The translations under genes and the position numbers were made by a program. A DNA stretch of 33,080 bases, taken from a virus. Below, piece after piece: positions 2,672-32,016 of the stretch (its first letter is position 1; the number at the start of each line of letters is the position of its first letter). The DNA lies in IMG/VR virus record IMGVR_UViG_3300037042_001751, positions 1-33,080 of that record. The stretch is one strand, 5' to 3'. The notes below the pieces were generated by a model that was not told where the DNA came from, searched no databases, and was given only the letters and a program-made list of their open reading frames with translations.

Positions 2672-2868
2672 TGAAAGAAGATATGAAAACTCAAATTATT
2701 GTTCACAGTATTTTTCGATCAAACGGCTGTGCTTTTGCAAACGTTACCGTTATCAAAGACGCTGACACTCGCACAGGAACCTACAAAATCGAACGGAAGG
2801 ACGACGAAGAGTTGCCTGCCGAAGATGATGTAATCCAGCAGGTGAAAGCTATCTACGGCATCGAATGA
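2671..2868 (+). CDS. Small protein of unknown function
   Basis: A 65-residue protein whose ATG shares one base with the previous stop (TAATG) and whose own stop overlaps the next ATG (ATGA), so all three genes are translationally coupled. A second in-frame ATG at 2683 (MKTQIIVHS) is an alternative start. The sequence looks like a small beta-strand fold followed by an acidic tail (Asp-Asp-Glu-Glu) and a short helix. I do not recognise the family. Its place within the virion operon suggests a small structural or assembly factor, but nothing in the sequence proves it. Confidence 0.7.
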   Translation: MKEDMKTQIIVHSIFRSNGCAFANVTVIKDADTRTGTYKIERKDDEELPAEDDVIQQVKAIYGIE

Positions 2869-3146
2869 AAAAAGATTCTCGCCTAGAAAAAGTCGGTGTC
2901 GCTGGGTTTAACAAGCCCAAGCGCACACCGTCGCACCCGACAAAATCGCATGTTGTTGTTGCCAAGGAAGGCGACAAAATCAAAACAATTCGATTCGGTC
3001 AGCAGGGGGTTTCTGGTTCTCCAAAGCGTGAAGGAGAATCGGAGGCCGATAAGACTAGGCGGGAATCATTCAAGGCCAGACACGCAAAAAATATCGCCAA
3101 GGGCAAAATGTCTGCGGCTTGGTGGAGTAACCGCTCGAAGTGGTAA
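2865..3146 (+). CDS. Small basic protein of a common phage family
   Basis: A 93-residue, strongly basic protein. Its C-terminus (ARHAKNIAKGKMSAAWWSNR) closely resembles a short Lys/Ala/Trp ending that I recall from small proteins of many podophages near the portal, neck or stabiliser genes. The N-terminal half is Lys/Pro-rich and probably disordered. It overlaps the preceding gene by four bases (ATGA). Function is unknown; the positive charge would fit contact with packaged DNA or an acidic partner, which is inference. Another frame is open over the same bases, but the family-like C-terminus and the coupled start identify this frame as coding. Confidence 0.75.
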   Translation: MKKDSRLEKVGVAGFNKPKRTPSHPTKSHVVVAKEGDKIKTIRFGQQGVSGSPKREGESEADKTRRESFKARHAKNIAKGKMSAAWWSNRSKW

Positions 3147-3166
3147 ACAATGTCAAGTGGTAAATT

Positions 3167-4567
3167 ATGCAAATTCCAATAGTTCAGGGCATATACACTG
3201 ACAGCAAACCTGATTTTCGCACTTCATATCCGCGCAATCTGGTTCCTGTCCCAAAGTCAAACGGTATCAGTGAGGGCTATTTACGCCCCGCTGATGGCAT
3301 TGTGCAGCTCGGTACTGGTGTCGGTGTTGATCGTGGTGGCATGGAGTGGAACGGCGTTTGCTATCGAGTAATGGGCACAAAGCTGGTTAGCATCGACTCG
3401 CTTGGGGCTTCGACTATCCTGGGCGATGTTGGCGGGGCAGGACAAGTCACGTTTGATTACTCATTCGACAGGCTTGCGGTTGCCTCTGGTGGCAATCTTT
3501 ACTACTACGATGGAACGACATTCACGCAAGTTACCGACCCAGATATCGGAACCGTGGTTGATTTGGTTTGGGTCGATGGTTATTTTATGACCACTGATGG
3601 TGAGTTCTTGATCGTCACTGAGTTGAATAACCCACTTGCAGTGAACCCGCTAAAATACGGCAGCGCAGAAGCCGACCCAGATCCGGTTGTCGCGTTGTTG
3701 AAAGTGCGAAATGAAGTCTATGCACTGAACCGTCACACAATCGAAGTTTTCGATAACGTGGGCGGTGAGTTGTTTCCATTCAGTCGCATTGATGGAGCGC
3801 AAATTCAACGTGGCGCAATTGGCACAAATACTTGTTGCGTGTATCTCGATGCGATTGCGTTCATGGGTAGTGGGCGGAATGAATCTGTTTCTATTTGGCT
3901 TGGAGCCAACGGTCAAAGCATGAAATTGTCGAGCCGTGAAATCGACGAAATCCTGTCAGAGTACACAGAAGCGCAATTGTCCACGGCAGTTATGGAAGCG
4001 GTTTCGTACAAGTCGCATAATTTCCTGTACATCCATTTGCCAAACCGCACGATTGTTTATGACGGTGGAGCATCGAAGGAGTTGGGCGTACCGGTATGGT
4101 TTGTTCTTACTAGCGGTGTCGGATCCACCGGGCAATATAGAGCACGTAACTTCGTGTGGTGCTACAACAAGTGGCTAGTTGGTGACCCGACTAGCACAAG
4201 CCACGGATACATCGATTCGACTATCTCGACGCATTACGGAAATGCCGTGGCGTGGGAGTTTGGCACCCAGATCATTTACAACGAAAGCCGAGGAGCAATC
4301 CTTCATTCGCTTGAATTGGTCAGTCTTACGGGCCGTGTTGCAATTGGAGCAGAGCCGCAAATAAGCACTTCATATTCTATTGATGGGATAACGTACAGCC
4401 AAGAGAGATTCGCAAAAGTAGGCGCGTCAGGAAATACGACAAAGCGCATTGTCTGGCTGCAACAAGGAAGCATGAGAAATTGGCGCATACAGCGCTTCAA
4501 AGGTACAAGTGATGCCCACATATCAATGGCACGCTTGGAAGCCGTCATAGAGCCGCTAAATGTCTAG
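3167..4567 (+). CDS. P22 gp10-like packaged DNA stabilization (tail hub) protein
   Basis: The 466-residue protein starts MQIPIVQGIYTDSKPDFRTS and continues with YPRNLVPVPK and a Gly-Tyr-Leu-Arg-Pro segment, the hallmark N-terminus of the gp10 family (Phage_stabilise). In P22, gp10 forms the hexameric tail hub that closes the portal channel after packaging, together with gp4. The length is close to the P22 protein (about 470 residues). The middle is made of repeated beta segments with Gly-Asn-Leu-Tyr-Tyr-Tyr-Asp and Tyr-Phe-Met-Thr-Thr-Asp-Gly turns, consistent with its known beta-rich fold. The gene overlaps the next by 8 bp. Its separation from the gp4-like gene by about five open reading frames is one reason to think extra neck components are present. 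Confidence 0.93.
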   Translation: MQIPIVQGIYTDSKPDFRTSYPRNLVPVPKSNGISEGYLRPADGIVQLGTGVGVDRGGMEWNGVCYRVMGTKLVSIDSLGASTILGDVGGAGQVTFDYSFDRLAVASGGNLYYYDGTTFTQVTDPDIGTVVDLVWVDGYFMTTDGEFLIVTELNNPLAVNPLKYGSAEADPDPVVALLKVRNEVYALNRHTIEVFDNVGGELFPFSRIDGAQIQRGAIGTNTCCVYLDAIAFMGSGRNESVSIWLGANGQSMKLSSREIDEILSEYTEAQLSTAVMEAVSYKSHNFLYIHLPNRTIVYDGGASKELGVPVWFVLTSGVGSTGQYRARNFVWCYNKWLVGDPTSTSHGYIDSTISTHYGNAVAWEFGTQIIYNESRGAILHSLELVSLTGRVAIGAEPQISTSYSIDGITYSQERFAKVGASGNTTKRIVWLQQGSMRNWRIQRFKGTSDAHISMARLEAVIEPLNV

Positions 4568-19423: not shown

Positions 19424-20074
19424 TTACTTGTTTGCTGCTGCTCGGATTTTTGCTTCGATGCTGTCTACATACGCCAAAAATTTGCGTGTTTTCTGGTCAA
19501 TGTCTGCCATTTCTGATTCGTCACGCTCAAACCGAGTGACGAACAGGTCAAGACCTGATCTGCTCAGTCGAGGGTCGTAAACACCGATATCGACCCATTG
19601 CAGATTGCAGATATACATCTGAAACTTGCACTGCTGTTCGTATTCCGACACATCGCCAGTTGCCCAGATTTCAGCTACTTTGGTCTGGCTGAACGGGCAT
19701 TTAATTTCCAATGCGCCGATGGGCTTGACGTTGTCATCACAGATGAGCCTATCGGGGCTACAACCGGCCGAAAGTTCACCGTGGAATACAAACCCTACAC
19801 TTGTAAGAATCTGGCCTGTGCGAACCTCATACGCATCGGCGGCAAGTGATTCATTATCTTTGCCCCACTGCGTGGCTGTGTTGCCGACGAAGTTATCGCA
19901 CAGGCTTCCGGTAATACGTTCCAAGGCCAGTTTGTGCGCCAGCGTTTTACCTGCTGCTGTCATCGAGCCATCTTTTTTGACAGACAAAAAATCTGACGCA
20001 TTGGAGGCCGAAAGAACACCGGTACGGATAGCAAGCCATTCGGCAGAGCCTTGCTCAACGTTGATGATTTTCAT
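19424..20074 (-). CDS. YqaJ-family viral exonuclease
   Basis: A 216-residue protein with the YqaJ/lambda-exonuclease motifs in order: QGSAEWLAIRTGVLSASNAS near the start, Gly-Asn-Thr-Ala-Thr-Gln-Trp-Gly-Lys-Asp-Asn-Glu, then GCSPDRLI and GALEIKCPFS, whose Asp-x-n-Glu-x-Lys residues form the PD-(D/E)XK nuclease centre. It digests one strand of double-stranded DNA from an end, creating single strands for the annealing protein encoded just upstream. Together with the Bet/RecT gene it makes a two-component recombination system acting on phage DNA ends and concatemers. Only six bases separate it from that gene. Length matches lambda exonuclease (226). Confidence 0.93.
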   Translation of the reverse strand: MKIINVEQGSAEWLAIRTGVLSASNASDFLSVKKDGSMTAAGKTLAHKLALERITGSLCDNFVGNTATQWGKDNESLAADAYEVRTGQILTSVGFVFHGELSAGCSPDRLICDDNVKPIGALEIKCPFSQTKVAEIWATGDVSEYEQQCKFQMYICNLQWVDIGVYDPRLSRSGLDLFVTRFERDESEMADIDQKTRKFLAYVDSIEAKIRAAANK

Positions 20075-20080
20075 GATTGA

Positions 20081-20881
20081 TTACCCCCCGAAAAAATCGC
20101 TAACGGTTTTGTCCATTTCCGTGCTGGCCTCTACCGGTTCTGCCTCGATGGTCCGGTCTTTGTCAGCCTGCATTGCAATAGCTTTCCTTCGGTTGTGCGC
20201 CTCGGTGCCGTATGCTTTGCGCTGTGCTGGGGTGAGTTCCTTCCAGAAAGTTTGGTATGCCTGAACACCCTTTGATGCAGCATCGTCCGCAGGGATACGC
20301 ATTTCCTCGGATTCCTGGGCGATTTGCTCATTACCCAATGCGTCAATTTCTTTGACCATCTGATGATTGACAGATTCGGCGATTCGGTCGGCTTCGTCTG
20401 CGTCATAGATACCGGCAAACCCGAAAGCAAGACGGGCACACTGAATCAGTGCTTTGTGTCGCAGCATACGCTTTGGGTGTGACTGCCAAGGTTGTGCGTT
20501 TCGCTTGCACTCGCTCATGTATTCGGTGACAGTGGTTGGGTGACTGCGGTCTTTGCGGTACATGATGCAAGTACAGGACTCATCGTCCTGGCGGAACTCA
20601 ATGCCATCGAATTGCTGGTGCTGATTGATGATTCGCGCCCAACCATCGACAGACACAACAGGCACAATGCCTGCGTTACGGTCTGGGAAAGCGTAAATCT
20701 CTTTTGTCCAAGGGTTGAGGCCGTATTGATTAGAAACAATCAGAAGCGCGGCGAGCTGTGAGTCGGACACCTGACCCTTGAAGGCAGTAGCTTTCAGTGT
20801 TGTTACAAGTTCATCTCCGGCTCCTGTCAGGCCGAGTGCGTCTGCGAGCTTGTTTGCTTGGGCTATTACGATGTTGCTCAT
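20081..20881 (-). CDS. Bet/RecT-family single-strand annealing protein
   Basis: A 266-residue protein. Its core has LLIVSNQYGLNPWTKEIYAF, a Val-Val-Ser-Val-Asp-Gly-Trp-Ala-Arg segment, a Cys-Lys-Arg-Asn region and RMLRHKALIQCARLAFGFAG, which are the Redβ/RecT signatures. It binds single-stranded DNA as rings or filaments and anneals complementary strands. Position upstream of the exonuclease and co-transcription suggest they act as a pair, feeding concatemers for headful packaging. The C-terminal third is acidic and variable, as usual for this family. The start at 20881 has GGAGG (in ATCGGAGGATTTT) upstream. Confidence in family is high. Confidence 0.93.
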   Translation of the reverse strand: MSNIVIAQANKLADALGLTGAGDELVTTLKATAFKGQVSDSQLAALLIVSNQYGLNPWTKEIYAFPDRNAGIVPVVSVDGWARIINQHQQFDGIEFRQDDESCTCIMYRKDRSHPTTVTEYMSECKRNAQPWQSHPKRMLRHKALIQCARLAFGFAGIYDADEADRIAESVNHQMVKEIDALGNEQIAQESEEMRIPADDAASKGVQAYQTFWKELTPAQRKAYGTEAHNRRKAIAMQADKDRTIEAEPVEASTEMDKTVSDFFGG

Positions 20882-24715: not shown

Positions 24716-25213
24716 ATGGCTAATGAAAAATCAAAAAGAGCAACAAGAAAATATGACCAATTAACAAAAGAACAAATGATTGAATCAATTTTGGATTCAA
24801 TGTCCACAAAAGGCAAAAGCGCATTTGCTGCGTGTAAAGCAGTCGGGTTGCCGCAAAGCACGTTTAATTTGTGGGTTGACCAAGATAAAGAACTGGCCGA
24901 AAAATATGCGCGCGCGCGAGAAGATTTAATCGAGAAACTCGCAGAAGAAACTTTGCAAATTGCAGATGAGCCAGTCGGCAGCACTGAAAGCGGATCCACT
25001 GATTCCGGCGCAGTGCAAAAGCAAAAATTGCAGGTTGATACTAGAAAATGGCTTCTTTCAAAACTTGCCCCCAGAAAGTACGGCGAAAAAATCCAATTGG
25101 CTGGCGATAAAGAGAATCCGATTGAGATTAAGTCGACCATTGACACGACCAAGTTATCGACCGAAACACTAGCCGAAATCATGGCCGCAAAAGATGCAAC
25201 TGACAGAGACTGA
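24716..25213 (+). CDS. Small terminase subunit (Sf6-like)
   Basis: A 165-residue protein. Its N-terminal region is a helix-turn-helix (AFAACKAVGLPQSTFNLWVD) followed by a long helical stretch (Arg-Glu-Asp-Leu-Ile-Glu-Lys-Leu-Ala-Glu-Glu-Thr-Leu) and Gln-Val-Asp-Thr-Arg-Lys-Trp-Leu-Leu-Ser-Lys-Leu, the combination seen in Sf6 gp1-type small terminases. The protein recognises the pac site and recruits the large subunit for headful packaging. The gene overlaps the large subunit by 20 bp. AAGG precedes the ATG. Confidence 0.9.
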   Translation: MANEKSKRATRKYDQLTKEQMIESILDSMSTKGKSAFAACKAVGLPQSTFNLWVDQDKELAEKYARAREDLIEKLAEETLQIADEPVGSTESGSTDSGAVQKQKLQVDTRKWLLSKLAPRKYGEKIQLAGDKENPIEIKSTIDTTKLSTETLAEIMAAKDATDRD

Positions 25214-27665
25214 CCTTTTGAATGTAGAGCGTGAACTTTGCCGCCGGTCTTTGGCTGAGTTCGCTAAACGTGCGTGGAAGGTTTTAGAGCCAGCACAGCC
25301 GCTTAAATGGGGCTGGGCGTTGGATGCTATTTGCCTGCACTTGGAAGCGGTCACAGACGGCCGTATAACCCGCCTGCTGATGAATGTCCCCCCTGGTTCG
25401 ATGAAGTCTCTCCTGACTGGTGTTATCTGGCCTGCATGGGAGTGGGGGCCGAAAGATATGCCGTGGAAGCGGTTTGTCGGAACGGCTCATGAGGAACAGC
25501 TTGCAATTCGGGATAGTCGTCGATGCCGTGATCTTGTTAAGTCTGAATGGTTTCAAAAGCTGTGGCCATTGCAATTATTGCCAGACCTAGACGGAAAAAG
25601 AGAGTTTGGAAACGTTCAAAAAGGAATTCGTCAGGCTCGCGCATTTACATCAATGACTGGCGTTCGTGGTGATTGCCTTTTAGCCGGCTCTATGATTCAA
25701 ACAGAGGACGGGATAAAAGACATCAAAGAAATTGTTAGCAACTCGTATTCCGGTAGCGTGTTATCATACGATCATGATTCCAAGCAACTGGTTTATAGAC
25801 AAATTCAAGCCGTGGCGCGGCGTTCATCGCTCGATTTCTATCGAATCCACTTTGCCGATGGGCGCATGGTCGAATGTACTGGCGATCATCGAATCTACAC
25901 CACCAGAGGATATTTCGCGGCGAGCCTTCTTTCCGAGGGTGACGCTTGCCTGCGTGTGCTGCCAAGTTCCTGTAATACGTACGGTTGCGGACATGAAGAA
26001 GCACATCAAGAATGGATACCATCATGTGACGTGCTCAAAGCGGTGCAGTCAAATATTGACGAACACAGCGGCAGGGAAGATGGGGCAGAATTGCACAATT
26101 TGTGGCGTCAAGATTCACAAGAACAAAAGACAGTGCTCATCAGCCTGCAAAGCGGAAGCATTGAGGTTAAAAGGGTTAAGAAGCAAAAAAAACATGGGGA
26201 TTTTTTCCTGCCTCGTTTGCAAAACACAAAAGCCAAGAAAAACACTGGCTTATCAGCAAAAATTTTGCTCGGTGACCTGCAAGGACGATCATCATGCATT
26301 GTCGATGCGTGGCCAAAAAAACCCTGGGTGGCGCGACGGTGCGAATGCAAAAAGGTACGACAAGGGGGTTCAGAGAGCCTACAAGATTGCGCGGGAAATT
26401 GTTCTTTCGAAAGATCAGAGCAGGTGCGTTGTTTGCGAATCAATGAGCAGACTTCACTGCCACCACATCGACCACGATTCAACGAACAATCGACTGGAAA
26501 ACTTAGTTACGCTTTGTCAGGCTTGCCACATGAAACACCATGGAGCGGAACGTTCGAGGTTCAAGAAGTCTCCGTTTCCATGGTTGAGCGAGTATGCGAA
26601 GGCGCGGACGTATTTGATATCCAAGTCGCTGGAACGCATTGCTTCTTTGCGAATGGCGTACTTGTCCATAACTGTGTAATCCTTGATGACCCAATCAGCG
26701 CAGATAATGCAAATAGTCAGGCAAAAATAGAAGCGGCTCGGATTGCCTTCACTGAGACATTGCCGACACGTGTAAACAGTGACAAGTCAGCGATTGTGGT
26801 CATCATGCAGCGTTTGCACGAGAAAGACACAAGCGGGGTCATTCTGGACATGAAATTGCCTTATGTGCATTTGTACATTCCGATGCGCTTTGAGGCGGCA
26901 CGGCGTTGCACAACTTCGATTGGGTGGTCAGACCCTAGAAGCCATGAAGGTGAACTGATGTTTCCAGAGCGATTCGGGGAGCAGCAGGTTAGAGAGCTTG
27001 AGAGCACGCTTGGTACATACGGAACAGCGGGACAGCTGCAGCAGCGGCCGGCACCACGTGGCGGTGGCATTTTGAATACTTCATGGCTAAAGTATTGGAG
27101 CGATTACCCGCCGGCAATCGAATTCCGGTTTATTACGGTGGACACGGCACAAAAGACAAGCCAGCAGAACGATTATTCGGTTTTGCAGTGTTGGGGAAGG
27201 TCGATAACTGGTCAGGCGGTGAAACTAGACCGAATCCGCGGGAAATGGGAAGCGCCGGAGTTATTGACTCAGGCAAGGGCTTTCTGGTTGAAACAGCAGG
27301 CAGACGGAAGGCCACAGGTATCTAATGCGGCATTGCGTGGTATGTATGTCGAAGATAAAGTATCTGGAACTGGGTTGATTCAGACATTGCGCCGTGAGGG
27401 ATTTCCTGTTATCCCAGTGCAGCGTAATAAGGATAAGATTACCCGCGCATACGATGCCGCTCCATTCATTGAATCTGGTAACGTTATGCTTCCACAGGAT
27501 GCGCCATGGCTGTCTGAATTCCTTGATGAAGTGTCATCATTCCCTGCTGGCGCACATGATGACCAGTTAGACCCGATGTTTGACGCAATTGCAATTGTGC
27601 AAAAAACACCATTAAACAAGAAAACAAATACATTCGTCCCATTGCCAACGTCTAATCGTTGGTGA
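25194..27665 (+). CDS. Large terminase with intein (residues 161-493)
   Basis: An 823-residue precursor. Residues 1-160 carry the ATPase start with Walker A (NVPPGSMKSLL, Lys71). Residues 161-493 are an intein: Cys161-Leu-Leu-Ala-Gly block A, Glu-Cys-Thr-Gly-Asp-His-Arg-Ile block B (His232), Leu-Ser-Glu-Gly-Asp block N4, Asp-Val-Phe-Asp-Ile-Gln-Val block F and Val-Leu-Val-His-Asn end (His492, Asn493), followed by Cys494 of the host protein. Excision joins TSMTGVRGD to CVILDDP, the Walker B motif, giving a 490-residue enzyme of usual size. The C-terminal nuclease has FITVDTAQKTSQQND, a Val-Glu-Asp-Lys strand and DDQLDPMFDAIA. It pumps DNA and cuts it by headful. The central intein DNA also holds an HNH gene in another frame. 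Confidence 0.92.
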   Translation: MQLTETDLLNVERELCRRSLAEFAKRAWKVLEPAQPLKWGWALDAICLHLEAVTDGRITRLLMNVPPGSMKSLLTGVIWPAWEWGPKDMPWKRFVGTAHEEQLAIRDSRRCRDLVKSEWFQKLWPLQLLPDLDGKREFGNVQKGIRQARAFTSMTGVRGDCLLAGSMIQTEDGIKDIKEIVSNSYSGSVLSYDHDSKQLVYRQIQAVARRSSLDFYRIHFADGRMVECTGDHRIYTTRGYFAASLLSEGDACLRVLPSSCNTYGCGHEEAHQEWIPSCDVLKAVQSNIDEHSGREDGAELHNLWRQDSQEQKTVLISLQSGSIEVKRVKKQKKHGDFFLPRLQNTKAKKNTGLSAKILLGDLQGRSSCIVDAWPKKPWVARRCECKKVRQGGSESLQDCAGNCSFERSEQVRCLRINEQTSLPPHRPRFNEQSTGKLSYALSGLPHETPWSGTFEVQEVSVSMVERVCEGADVFDIQVAGTHCFFANGVLVHNCVILDDPISADNANSQAKIEAARIAFTETLPTRVNSDKSAIVVIMQRLHEKDTSGVILDMKLPYVHLYIPMRFEAARRCTTSIGWSDPRSHEGELMFPERFGEQQVRELESTLGTYGTAGQLQQRPAPRGGGILNTSWLKYWSDYPPAIEFRFITVDTAQKTSQQNDYSVLQCWGRSITGQAVKLDRIRGKWEAPELLTQARAFWLKQQADGRPQVSNAALRGMYVEDKVSGTGLIQTLRREGFPVIPVQRNKDKITRAYDAAPFIESGNVMLPQDAPWLSEFLDEVSSFPAGAHDDQLDPMFDAIAIVQKTPLNKKTNTFVPLPTSNRW
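25674..26672 (+). mobile_element. Intein element in the large terminase gene
   Basis: A 999-bp segment encoding 333 residues from Cys161 to Asn493 of the precursor. It has the splicing motifs of a class 1 intein at both ends, and the next codon is Cys, the needed nucleophile. The N-terminal splicing domain ends near residue 258 (25970) and the C-terminal domain begins near residue 450 (26540). The linker between them is the translation, in the terminase frame, of DNA that encodes zinc fingers and HNH in the +1 frame. Intein insertion next to an active-site motif of a terminase is typical. Confidence 0.93.
25732..26679 (+). CDS. Nested HNH homing-endonuclease-like gene, +1 frame inside the intein
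   Basis: A 315-codon frame one base forward of the terminase. Counting from codon 1 it has Cys74-x2-Cys77 and Cys101-x3-Cys105, Cys121-x2-Cys124 and Cys135-x3-Cys139, Cys160-x2-Cys163 and Cys179-x3-Cys183, then a GQKNPGWRDG segment and an HNH core Cys232-x2-Cys235, His244-His245, Asn257, Cys262-x2-Cys265-His266. This is a zinc-finger HNH endonuclease of the self-homing type. Credible coding starts near 25930; the actual start is unclear, with ATG at 25774, 25858 and 25993 (the last inside the first zinc finger) and GTG at 25939, none with a good ribosome site. The stop at 26679 lies seven bases past the intein end. Confidence 0.8.
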   Translation: MLATRIPVACYHTIMIPSNWFIDKFKPWRGVHRSISIESTLPMGAWSNVLAIIESTPPEDISRRAFFPRVTLACVCCQVPVIRTVADMKKHIKNGYHHVTCSKRCSQILTNTAAGKMGQNCTICGVKIHKNKRQCSSACKAEALRLKGLRSKKNMGIFSCLVCKTQKPRKTLAYQQKFCSVTCKDDHHALSMRGQKNPGWRDGANAKRYDKGVQRAYKIAREIVLSKDQSRCVVCESMSRLHCHHIDHDSTNNRLENLVTLCQACHMKHHGAERSRFKKSPFPWLSEYAKARTYLISKSLERIASLRMAYLSITV

Positions 27666-30726: not shown

Positions 30727-30747
30727 CTTTTAAATTTGGAGTAAATT

Positions 30748-32016
30748 ATGCCTAACGCATTTAGTAAAGAAGAACGCGTCGCCTTTGAAAACATCCTCGA
30801 AGGCTTTAACGATGCACTGGTGCTGTCCAAAAACGTCAGCATCTACAACACCGACCAGACCATGATGGAGCGGACTAACAACGTTGTATGGCGTCCTATG
30901 CCGTACATCGCTCAGTCTTTCGCTGGCACCAACATGACTAGTAACTTCAAGGATATGACCCAGTTGTCGGTTCCTGCGACGATCGGCTTTGGTCGCTCTG
31001 TTCCATGGGCGATGACTGCAACAGAATTGCGCGATGCTCTGCAAGAGCAGCGCCTGGGCGATGCAGCAAAACAGAAGCTGGCTTCTGATATCAACGTGTC
31101 TTTGATGTCTGTCGCCGCCAACCAAGGCACTTTGGTTGTTAAGCGTACCGCAGCCGCATCTGGTTTTGACGATATCGCCGCCGCTGATGCTCTGATGAAT
31201 GAATCTGGTGTTCAGCAGTTCGACCGTTTCTGCGCTCTGTCCAGCCGTGACTACAACAACATGGCAAGTAACTTGGCAAACCGCGCAAACATGGTCGGCA
31301 AGCCCACCACCGCATACGAGCGCGCTTACGTCGGCAATATCGCTGGCTTTGAAACGTTCAAAATGGACTACGCTAACTCGCTGGCCGTCCGCGCTGGTGT
31401 GACAGTGACTGTAAACGGTGCAAACCAGTTCTACACTCCAAAAGCCACTAGCACAGCCGGCACTGGCGAGACGAACAACGTAGACAACCGTTTCCAAAAC
31501 ATCAACATCACCGTGACATCTGGCACCGTGAAAGTTGGCGATGCGTTTACGATTCTGGGCGTGAACAACGTCAATGCAATCACCAAAGGCGATACCGGCC
31601 AACTGAAAACCTTCCGCATTACCGCAATCGTCACCGGCGCTGGTGGTACTGGCACAGTTCAGATTAGCCCCCCGATTATTTCCGGTGGCGGTGCAACTGA
31701 CGCTGAACTGCAGTACAAAAACTGCACGGCGACCCCCGCAGCAGGCGCAGCGATCACTTTCTTGAACACCGCAACCGCCAGCGTGAATCCTTTCTGGCAA
31801 AAAGACGCGCTGGAGATTCTGCCGGGTCGTTATGCTGTTCCTGAGAGTGCTGGTGCAGACGTTATGCGTGGAACGACAGACCAAGGCCTGGAACTGGTGA
31901 TGACGAAGCAATTCGACATCAACACGCTTCAGACTAAATTCCGTCTGGATACTCTGTATGGCGTTGTGAACAAGCAGCCAGAAATGTCCGGCATTATCCT
32001 GTTCGGTCAACCTTAA
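30748..32016 (+). CDS. Major coat protein (P22 gp5-like, HK97 fold with inserted domain)
   Basis: A 422-residue protein (P22 coat is 430) starting MPNAFSKEERVAFENILEGF and with the Met-Met-Glu-Arg-Thr-Asn-Asn-Val-Val-Trp-Arg-Pro, Ser-Val-Pro-Trp-Ala-Met and Phe-Lys-Met-Asp-Tyr-Ala segments characteristic of the P22 coat family. Residues about 220-345 are beta-rich (AGVTVTVNGANQFYTPKATS and ITVTSGTVKVGDAFTILGVN), corresponding to the telokin-like insertion domain. The C-terminus (ALEILPGRYAVPESAGADVM) restores the HK97 core. It builds the T=7-like capsid shell around the scaffold. GGAG precedes the ATG, and a strong terminator follows the stop. Confidence 0.95.
   Translation: MPNAFSKEERVAFENILEGFNDALVLSKNVSIYNTDQTMMERTNNVVWRPMPYIAQSFAGTNMTSNFKDMTQLSVPATIGFGRSVPWAMTATELRDALQEQRLGDAAKQKLASDINVSLMSVAANQGTLVVKRTAAASGFDDIAAADALMNESGVQQFDRFCALSSRDYNNMASNLANRANMVGKPTTAYERAYVGNIAGFETFKMDYANSLAVRAGVTVTVNGANQFYTPKATSTAGTGETNNVDNRFQNINITVTSGTVKVGDAFTILGVNNVNAITKGDTGQLKTFRITAIVTGAGGTGTVQISPPIISGGGATDAELQYKNCTATPAAGAAITFLNTATASVNPFWQKDALEILPGRYAVPESAGADVMRGTTDQGLELVMTKQFDINTLQTKFRLDTLYGVVNKQPEMSGIILFGQP

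What the first reader, a model, noticed from the sequence alone, without database searches (positions are those of the whole stretch)
25674..26679. Intein in the large terminase whose central DNA encodes an HNH endonuclease in the overlapping +1 frame
The terminase frame contains a complete intein (Cys161 to His-Asn493, then Cys). Its middle, about 25980-26540, shows no endonuclease motif in the intein frame. One base forward the same DNA encodes three C-x2-C ... C-x3-C zinc modules and a full HNH core (C-x2-C, HH, N, C-x2-C-H). Both frames stay open over more than 600 bases, including through the C-terminal splicing domain. Regular zinc spacing cannot arise in a shadow frame by chance, and an accidental open terminase frame over about 190 codons is improbable. 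This suggests a homing endonuclease that is not fused to its intein but nested as an overlapping gene. Split inteins with a separate endonuclease gene between the halves (fractured genes) are known; here the host protein is not split. Two compensating frameshifts in a former in-frame endonuclease is the alternative.
Basis: partly seen in the sequence, partly recalled or inferred. Interest (0 to 1): 0.92.

Follow-up and report, generated by a model that had tools for sequence, protein, structure and literature searches.

The report
Homing endonuclease nested out-of-frame in intein
In a phage DNA-packaging gene, a self-splicing protein insert (intein) carries the gene for its own DNA-cutting enzyme in a different, overlapping reading frame, and the same layout recurs in dozens of unrelated phages, so it is a stable and under-recognised way of building a selfish element rather than a sequencing error.

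Summary
Observation confirmed. The large-terminase ORF (25194-27665) holds an intein (25674-26672, Cys161-Asn493). The same DNA encodes a zinc-finger HNH endonuclease in the +1 frame (open to 26679). The layout is real and selected. Two viral-contig scans plus isolate phages Clown and S-EIVl gave 73 loci (43 clusters at 90% nt), all terminase inteins at the same pre-Walker-B site, all with HNH at +1. In 28 distinct, gap-free 337-aa inteins the fastest codon position switches from intein position 3 to the HNH wobble position across codons ~41-320 and back. In the middle the HNH frame is under purifying selection (omega-like 0.19), while the intein frame is neutral (1.66) but kept free of stops. 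Codons 36-95 are constrained in both frames. AlphaFold gives a mini-intein split by a disordered 190-residue stretch, and a folded HNH in the other frame. All 79 scorable close terminase relatives have an empty site. Best reading: a mobile intein whose homing endonuclease is a separate nested gene, and whose precursor reads through that gene as filler spliced away. How the HNH is translated, and homing itself, are inferred. Precedent: the out-of-frame HNH of ShiLan (not an intein); one unread preprint may overlap.

The parts
25194..25673 (+). N-extein of large terminase (160 aa, ends ...GVRGD)
   Evidence: ORF and intein boundary; terminase families
25674..25967 (+). Intein N-terminal splicing domain, residues 1-98 (Cys1 ... 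TGDH block)
   Evidence: TIGR01445 5.5e-8; AF2 pLDDT above 90 for residues 1-90, 83 for 91-100; Foldseek to mini-inteins
25968..26546 (+). Middle of intein in the terminase frame: stop-free, predicted disordered filler, not conserved as protein
   Evidence: AF2 pLDDT about 37-51 over residues 101-290; alignments without conserved motif; neutral in the related 337-aa family
26547..26672 (+). Intein C-terminal splicing domain (VFDIQV...FFANGVLVHN)
   Evidence: TIGR01443 2.3e-6; pLDDT 82-96
26673..27665 (+). C-extein of terminase, starts Cys-VILDDP (Walker B), nuclease domain
   Evidence: TIGR01630, Terminase_6C; empty-site relatives read R-VILDDP
25732..26679 (+). Nested +1-frame HNH endonuclease ORF; TTG 25732 is the first possible start, ATG 25774 the preferred candidate; start unproven
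   Evidence: HNH families; AF2 model
25951..26280 (+). Three zinc modules of the HNH protein (CVCC/CSKRC, CTIC/CSSAC, CLVC/CSVTC)
   Evidence: conserved cysteines in alignments A5/A7
26425..26526 (+). HNH catalytic core (CVVC ... HHIDHDSTNN ... CQAC-H)
   Evidence: invariant residues in 29 homologues

Best explanation
This is a mobile homing intein in the phage large terminase whose endonuclease is not a domain of the intein but a separate overlapping gene nested in it at +1. The terminase ribosome reads straight through the HNH gene in the wrong frame. This makes a ~190-residue disordered stretch inside an otherwise ordinary mini-intein, which then splices itself and that filler out and restores terminase. 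The HNH protein is made from the same DNA in the +1 frame, most simply by internal initiation about 30-60 codons into the intein. It cuts intein-free terminase genes at the Walker-B site, and recombination copies the intein in. The intein frame in the middle is selected only against stops. Shown by sequence: anatomy, recurrence, the switch of the selected frame (in relatives), stop avoidance, sporadic occupancy. Inferred: splicing, translation of the HNH, cleavage and homing.
For: Recurrence: Clown and S-EIVl terminases carry it at +1; 73 loci, 43 clusters, always +1. Selection: in 28 distinct 337-aa inteins middle changes at intein positions 1/2/3 are 753/362/277, versus 87/49/371 and 111/57/379 in exteins; an independent 313-aa family shows the same switch. 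Omega-like intein frame 0.09 extein, 0.23 N-intein, 1.66 middle, 0.08 C-intein; HNH frame 0.19 in the middle; codons 36-95 change at about half the rate. Stop avoidance: HNH-synonymous differences that make intein-frame stops 3.5 vs 24.4 expected; P of no stop <= 4e-4 in each of 22 representative inteins. Structure: Hint halves at high confidence with a disordered middle, matched to mini-inteins; HNH core pLDDT above 90. Mobility: 79 of 79 scorable close relatives empty; the nearest inteins sit in terminases only about 25% identical. Decay with the intein frame intact: L059 has lost 378 bp in frame, L043 has a nonsense codon. The phage encodes Bet/RecT-type annealing protein and RecE-type exonuclease that could serve homing recombination.
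Against: No conserved Shine-Dalgarno or unique start codon for the HNH was found; the best clue is an invariant TTG at codon 29 of the 337-aa family, which the intein frame partly explains. Foldseek with the HNH model gave no match at E <= 0.001; the HNH assignment rests on sequence families and catalytic residues. The selection tests come from relatives, not from near-identical copies of the window; the window-L168 pair alone shows the trend only weakly.
Confidence: 0.85

Rival explanations
1. Assembly or sequencing indels, or two recent compensating frameshifts, have thrown a normal in-frame intein HNH domain out of frame in this one contig.
For: An in-frame HNH intein exists at the same terminase site (L190).
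Against: The same +1 offset in 43 clusters and in isolate phages; zero stops in the host frame over about 200 codons in all of them; neutral but stop-free evolution of the middle intein frame.
Confidence: 0.02
2. The HNH is made by programmed +1 frameshifting from the terminase ribosome, giving a terminaseN-HintN-HNH fusion rather than a free protein.
For: The offset is always +1; no clear ribosome-binding site for a separate start.
Against: The +1 offset is also a phase that never forces a host-frame stop, and the loci are homologous, so constancy needs no frameshift; no conserved slippery site seen in codons 18-60 of the 337-aa family; in several families a +1 stop lies as late as codon 41-54, narrowing any frameshift site to the conserved Hint domain.
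Confidence: 0.1
3. The insertion is an RNA intron, or a non-splicing insertion like the ShiLan element, with an HNH ORF; the intein signature is a relic.
For: The ShiLan element has an out-of-frame HNH without intein domains (PMC11855218).
Against: Complete splicing blocks under strong purifying selection (omega-like 0.23 and 0.08), Cys1, TxxH, Asn-Cys junction in nearly all, high-confidence Hint fold, host frame open throughout.
Confidence: 0.03

Closest known systems
ShiLan element (hidden HNH in mycobacteriophage DNA methylases; Arsenault, Gosselin, Gogarten 2025, PMC11855218)
   Same: HNH homing-type endonuclease with zinc motifs encoded out of frame inside a host ORF that stays open; sporadic distribution
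   Different: ShiLan has no splicing domains and sits in a dispensable methylase, in the third frame; here a complete intein in essential terminase carries the HNH at +1, so the wrong-frame product can be spliced away
Canonical homing inteins with an in-frame endonuclease domain (e.g. terminase intein of Mycobacterium phage LittleE, in-frame LAGLIDADG; L190 in-frame HNH)
   Same: Splicing blocks, insertion in a conserved host motif, endonuclease gene between the splicing halves
   Different: Endonuclease is in another frame and cannot be made as part of the intein precursor
Fractured genes with split inteins and a free-standing endonuclease gene (Dassa et al. 2009, from memory); Lactobacillus phage CL2 terminase looks like this
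   Same: Endonuclease gene separate from the intein polypeptide, between its halves
   Different: Host gene and intein are unbroken here; no trans-splicing needed
Terminase inteins with a NUMOD4-HNH gene on the opposite strand (BUCT618, L244-L246)
   Same: Endonuclease gene nested in the middle of an open intein frame at the terminase pre-Walker-B site
   Different: Unrelated endonuclease type, antisense orientation

Membership tests
Intein | N- and C-terminal splicing blocks with Cys1, TxxH, and terminal Asn followed by Cys/Ser/Thr | tested here: met
   Pfam, TIGR01445, TIGR01443; boundaries; alignment; fold
Intein | Protein splicing activity | not testable with these tools
   Conserved catalytic residues and selection only
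Homing intein (canonical) | Endonuclease domain in frame between the splicing blocks | tested here: not met
   HNH lies at +1; intein frame middle has no motif and is disordered/neutral
Homing element | Sporadic occupancy of a conserved site, empty close relatives | tested here: met
   79 of 79 scorable close relatives empty; related inteins in distant terminases
HNH homing endonuclease | HNH core residues and zinc-binding cysteines | tested here: met
HNH homing endonuclease | Cleavage of the empty site | not testable with these tools
   needs purified protein
Fractured gene / split intein | Host gene split into two ORFs | tested here: not met
   single open terminase ORF 25194-27665
ShiLan-type insertion | Out-of-frame HNH in an insertion lacking splicing domains | tested here: not met
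   splicing domains present and selected

The most novel reading that the evidence does not exclude
Nested-endonuclease inteins are a widespread class in which splicing and homing are encoded by two overlapping genes, with the intein frame through the endonuclease gene kept only as stop-free filler. The layout arose at least twice at the same terminase site (+1 HNH, and antisense NUMOD4-HNH) because some phases allow any protein to be encoded without stops in the host frame.
Probability: 0.75. Interest if true: 0.85.

Novelty: new variant of a known kind. Interest (0 to 1): 0.78.

Why it matters
Homing inteins are described as one polypeptide with two activities. Here the two activities are separate overlapping genes, which frees the endonuclease from splicing and lets it decay or be exchanged independently. 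Annotated genomes hide it (Clown and S-EIVl are labelled only 'terminase'), so endonuclease-less inteins in databases may be undercounted homing elements. It also offers an unusually clean natural case of asymmetric dual coding: a functional gene in one frame over a pure read-through in the other.

Tried and rejected
Nucleotide search of phages with the intein: none. Single-sequence viral-contig searches with the window's intein or HNH: none; only the 3-sequence alignment A3 and the 26-sequence A7 opened the family. Chance open frame: rejected. Shine-Dalgarno search for the HNH start: no consistent site. Foldseek of the HNH model: no hit at E <= 0.001, top hits CTCF zinc fingers by superficial likeness, then HNH proteins with high probability but weak E-values. 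The all-tree parsimony count of stop-creating changes was blurred by multiple hits, so close pairs were used. Literature: Gosselin et al. preprint 10.1101/2025.01.02.630785 ('non-canonical architecture' of actinobacteriophage inteins) is not held and could already report overlapping frames in inteins such as Clown's.

Full report
What is there. The window is a 33-kb IMG/VR virus record. Its large terminase ORF, 25194-27665, follows a terminase small subunit and precedes portal, scaffold and major head genes. It contains an intein of 333 aa, 25674-26672, between GVRGD and Cys-VILDDP, the Walker B motif. Pfam, TIGR01445 and TIGR01443 match the splicing blocks. The +1 frame over the same DNA is open to a stop at 26679, seven bases past the intein end. 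It encodes three C-x2-C/C-x3-C modules and an HNH core, matching HNH families.

Not chance. With the HNH protein fixed and its codons redrawn from the contig's usage, 13.2 stops are expected in the intein frame and none of 20,000 draws was stop-free. The mechanism of avoidance is visible: of 67 HNH codons followed by an AA/AG/GA codon none ends in T, against 49 of 172 elsewhere. In the reverse test, with the intein-frame protein fixed, a stop-free +1 frame had P 0.003.

Relatives. tblastn against phages found Gordonia phage Clown and Synechococcus phage S-EIVl, where intein and HNH hits lie in one annotated 'terminase' gene at the same +1 offset. An HNH alignment of the three opened a large family in viral contigs. 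A second scan added more, including L168, 42% identical to the window's HNH over 300 residues. With a recognisable intein-terminase junction there are 73 loci (a few are duplicates of one record), 43 clusters at 90% and 38 at 80% nucleotide identity. All are terminase inteins just before Walker B, all with HNH at +1. In 29 aligned HNH proteins the HH, N, N, CxxCH and most zinc cysteines are invariant or nearly so.

Which frame is selected. Twenty-eight distinct inteins have exactly 337 aa and align without gaps. Parsimony changes concentrate at intein-frame position 3 in both exteins and intein codons 1-40, at position 1 (the HNH wobble base) over codons 41-320, and at position 3 again in codons 321-337 and the C-extein. 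An independent 313-aa family behaves the same way: exteins 14/5/87 and 24/17/100, codons 151-200 59/25/22, codons 201-270 63/31/15. Over seven close pairs the omega-like ratio of the intein frame is 0.09 in exteins, 0.23 in the first 35 codons, 1.66 in the middle and 0.08 in the C-terminal block; that of the HNH frame is 0.19 in the middle. Codons 36-95, where the Hint domain and the HNH N-terminal region overlap, change at about half the rate of elsewhere. Among HNH-synonymous differences in the middle those that create an intein-frame stop number 3.5 against 24.4 expected. So the HNH is the gene in the middle, and the intein frame there is selected mainly to stay open.

Structure. AlphaFold on the intein frame gives a confident Hint fold for about residues 1-98 and 292-333, with almost everything between below pLDDT 50 except a weak helix; Foldseek matches mini-inteins such as Mtu RecA (TM to target 0.84-0.88). 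The +1 protein is modelled with pLDDT above 90 over its HNH core. Its Foldseek matches are weak.

Mobility and decay. Of 80 close terminase relatives fetched, the 79 with both flanks scorable all have an empty site, GVRGD-R-VILDDP. The window's intein is instead closest to inteins in terminases about 25% identical. L059 and L061 carry 211-aa inteins; in L059 a 378-bp in-frame deletion plus a stop has ruined the HNH while the intein frame remains open, and L043, L008 and L170 have an HNH-frame stop with the host frame intact. The opposite, a broken host frame with intact HNH inside a terminase intein, was not seen in the loci fetched. This fits the homing cycle of invasion, decay and loss.

Why always +1. 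By dynamic programming over synonymous codons, an HNH at +1 can always be written without host-frame stops, whereas at +2 a median of one stop (up to four) is unavoidable. The loci are homologous, so this is a permissive condition, not a count of independent choices. The direct antisense phase is equally permissive for these HNH proteins. In BUCT618, L244, L245 and L246 a NUMOD4-HNH gene lies antisense inside terminase inteins at this site; its exact antisense phase was not worked out.

Open points. How the HNH is translated is unknown: no shared ribosome-binding site was found. In the 337-aa family codon 29 of the +1 frame is TTG in 28 of 28 sequences, a candidate start that the intein frame partly explains. 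In the window ATG 25774 is preferred because the related L168 has a +1 stop at codon 30 followed by a methionine codon at 32. Splicing, cleavage and homing were not tested.

Prior knowledge. The nearest published case in the held library is the ShiLan element, an out-of-frame HNH in phage methylases without splicing domains (PMC11855218). Literature searches found no intein with a nested out-of-frame endonuclease. A cited preprint on non-canonical actinobacteriophage inteins is not held, and the ShiLan paper cites it when saying overlapping frames are frequent in actinobacteriophages, so priority is uncertain. Hence 'new variant of a known kind'.

Noticed in passing
L005 2003-4369 (+) with 2720-3391 (-); L244, L245, L246: Terminase inteins at the same site whose middle carries a NUMOD4-HNH endonuclease gene on the opposite strand; BUCT618 plus three loci whose endonucleases are 33-68% identical to it.
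   Followed up: partly
L209 1832-3625, L211 1394-3640, L235 774-2558: Related HNH ORFs nested out of frame in DNA methyltransferase ORFs (+2 in two C5-methylases, +1 in one N6/N4-methylase) without intein motifs, resembling the published ShiLan arrangement.
   Followed up: partly
L190 ORF from 1870: Terminase with a canonical in-frame HNH intein at the pre-Walker-B site and a second, LAGLIDADG-type intein further on.
   Followed up: partly
L004 473-2774: Lactobacillus phage CL2 terminase looks fractured: N-intein ends the first ORF, then a free HNH gene, then an ORF with C-intein and terminase tail that overlaps the HNH gene.
   Followed up: no
window 30730-32010 (-): A 426-aa open frame antisense to the major head protein gene; no PHROG match, probably a shadow frame.
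   Followed up: no
window 19424-20881 (-): RecE-like exonuclease and Bet/RecT-like annealing protein genes, a recombination system that could serve homing.
   Followed up: no
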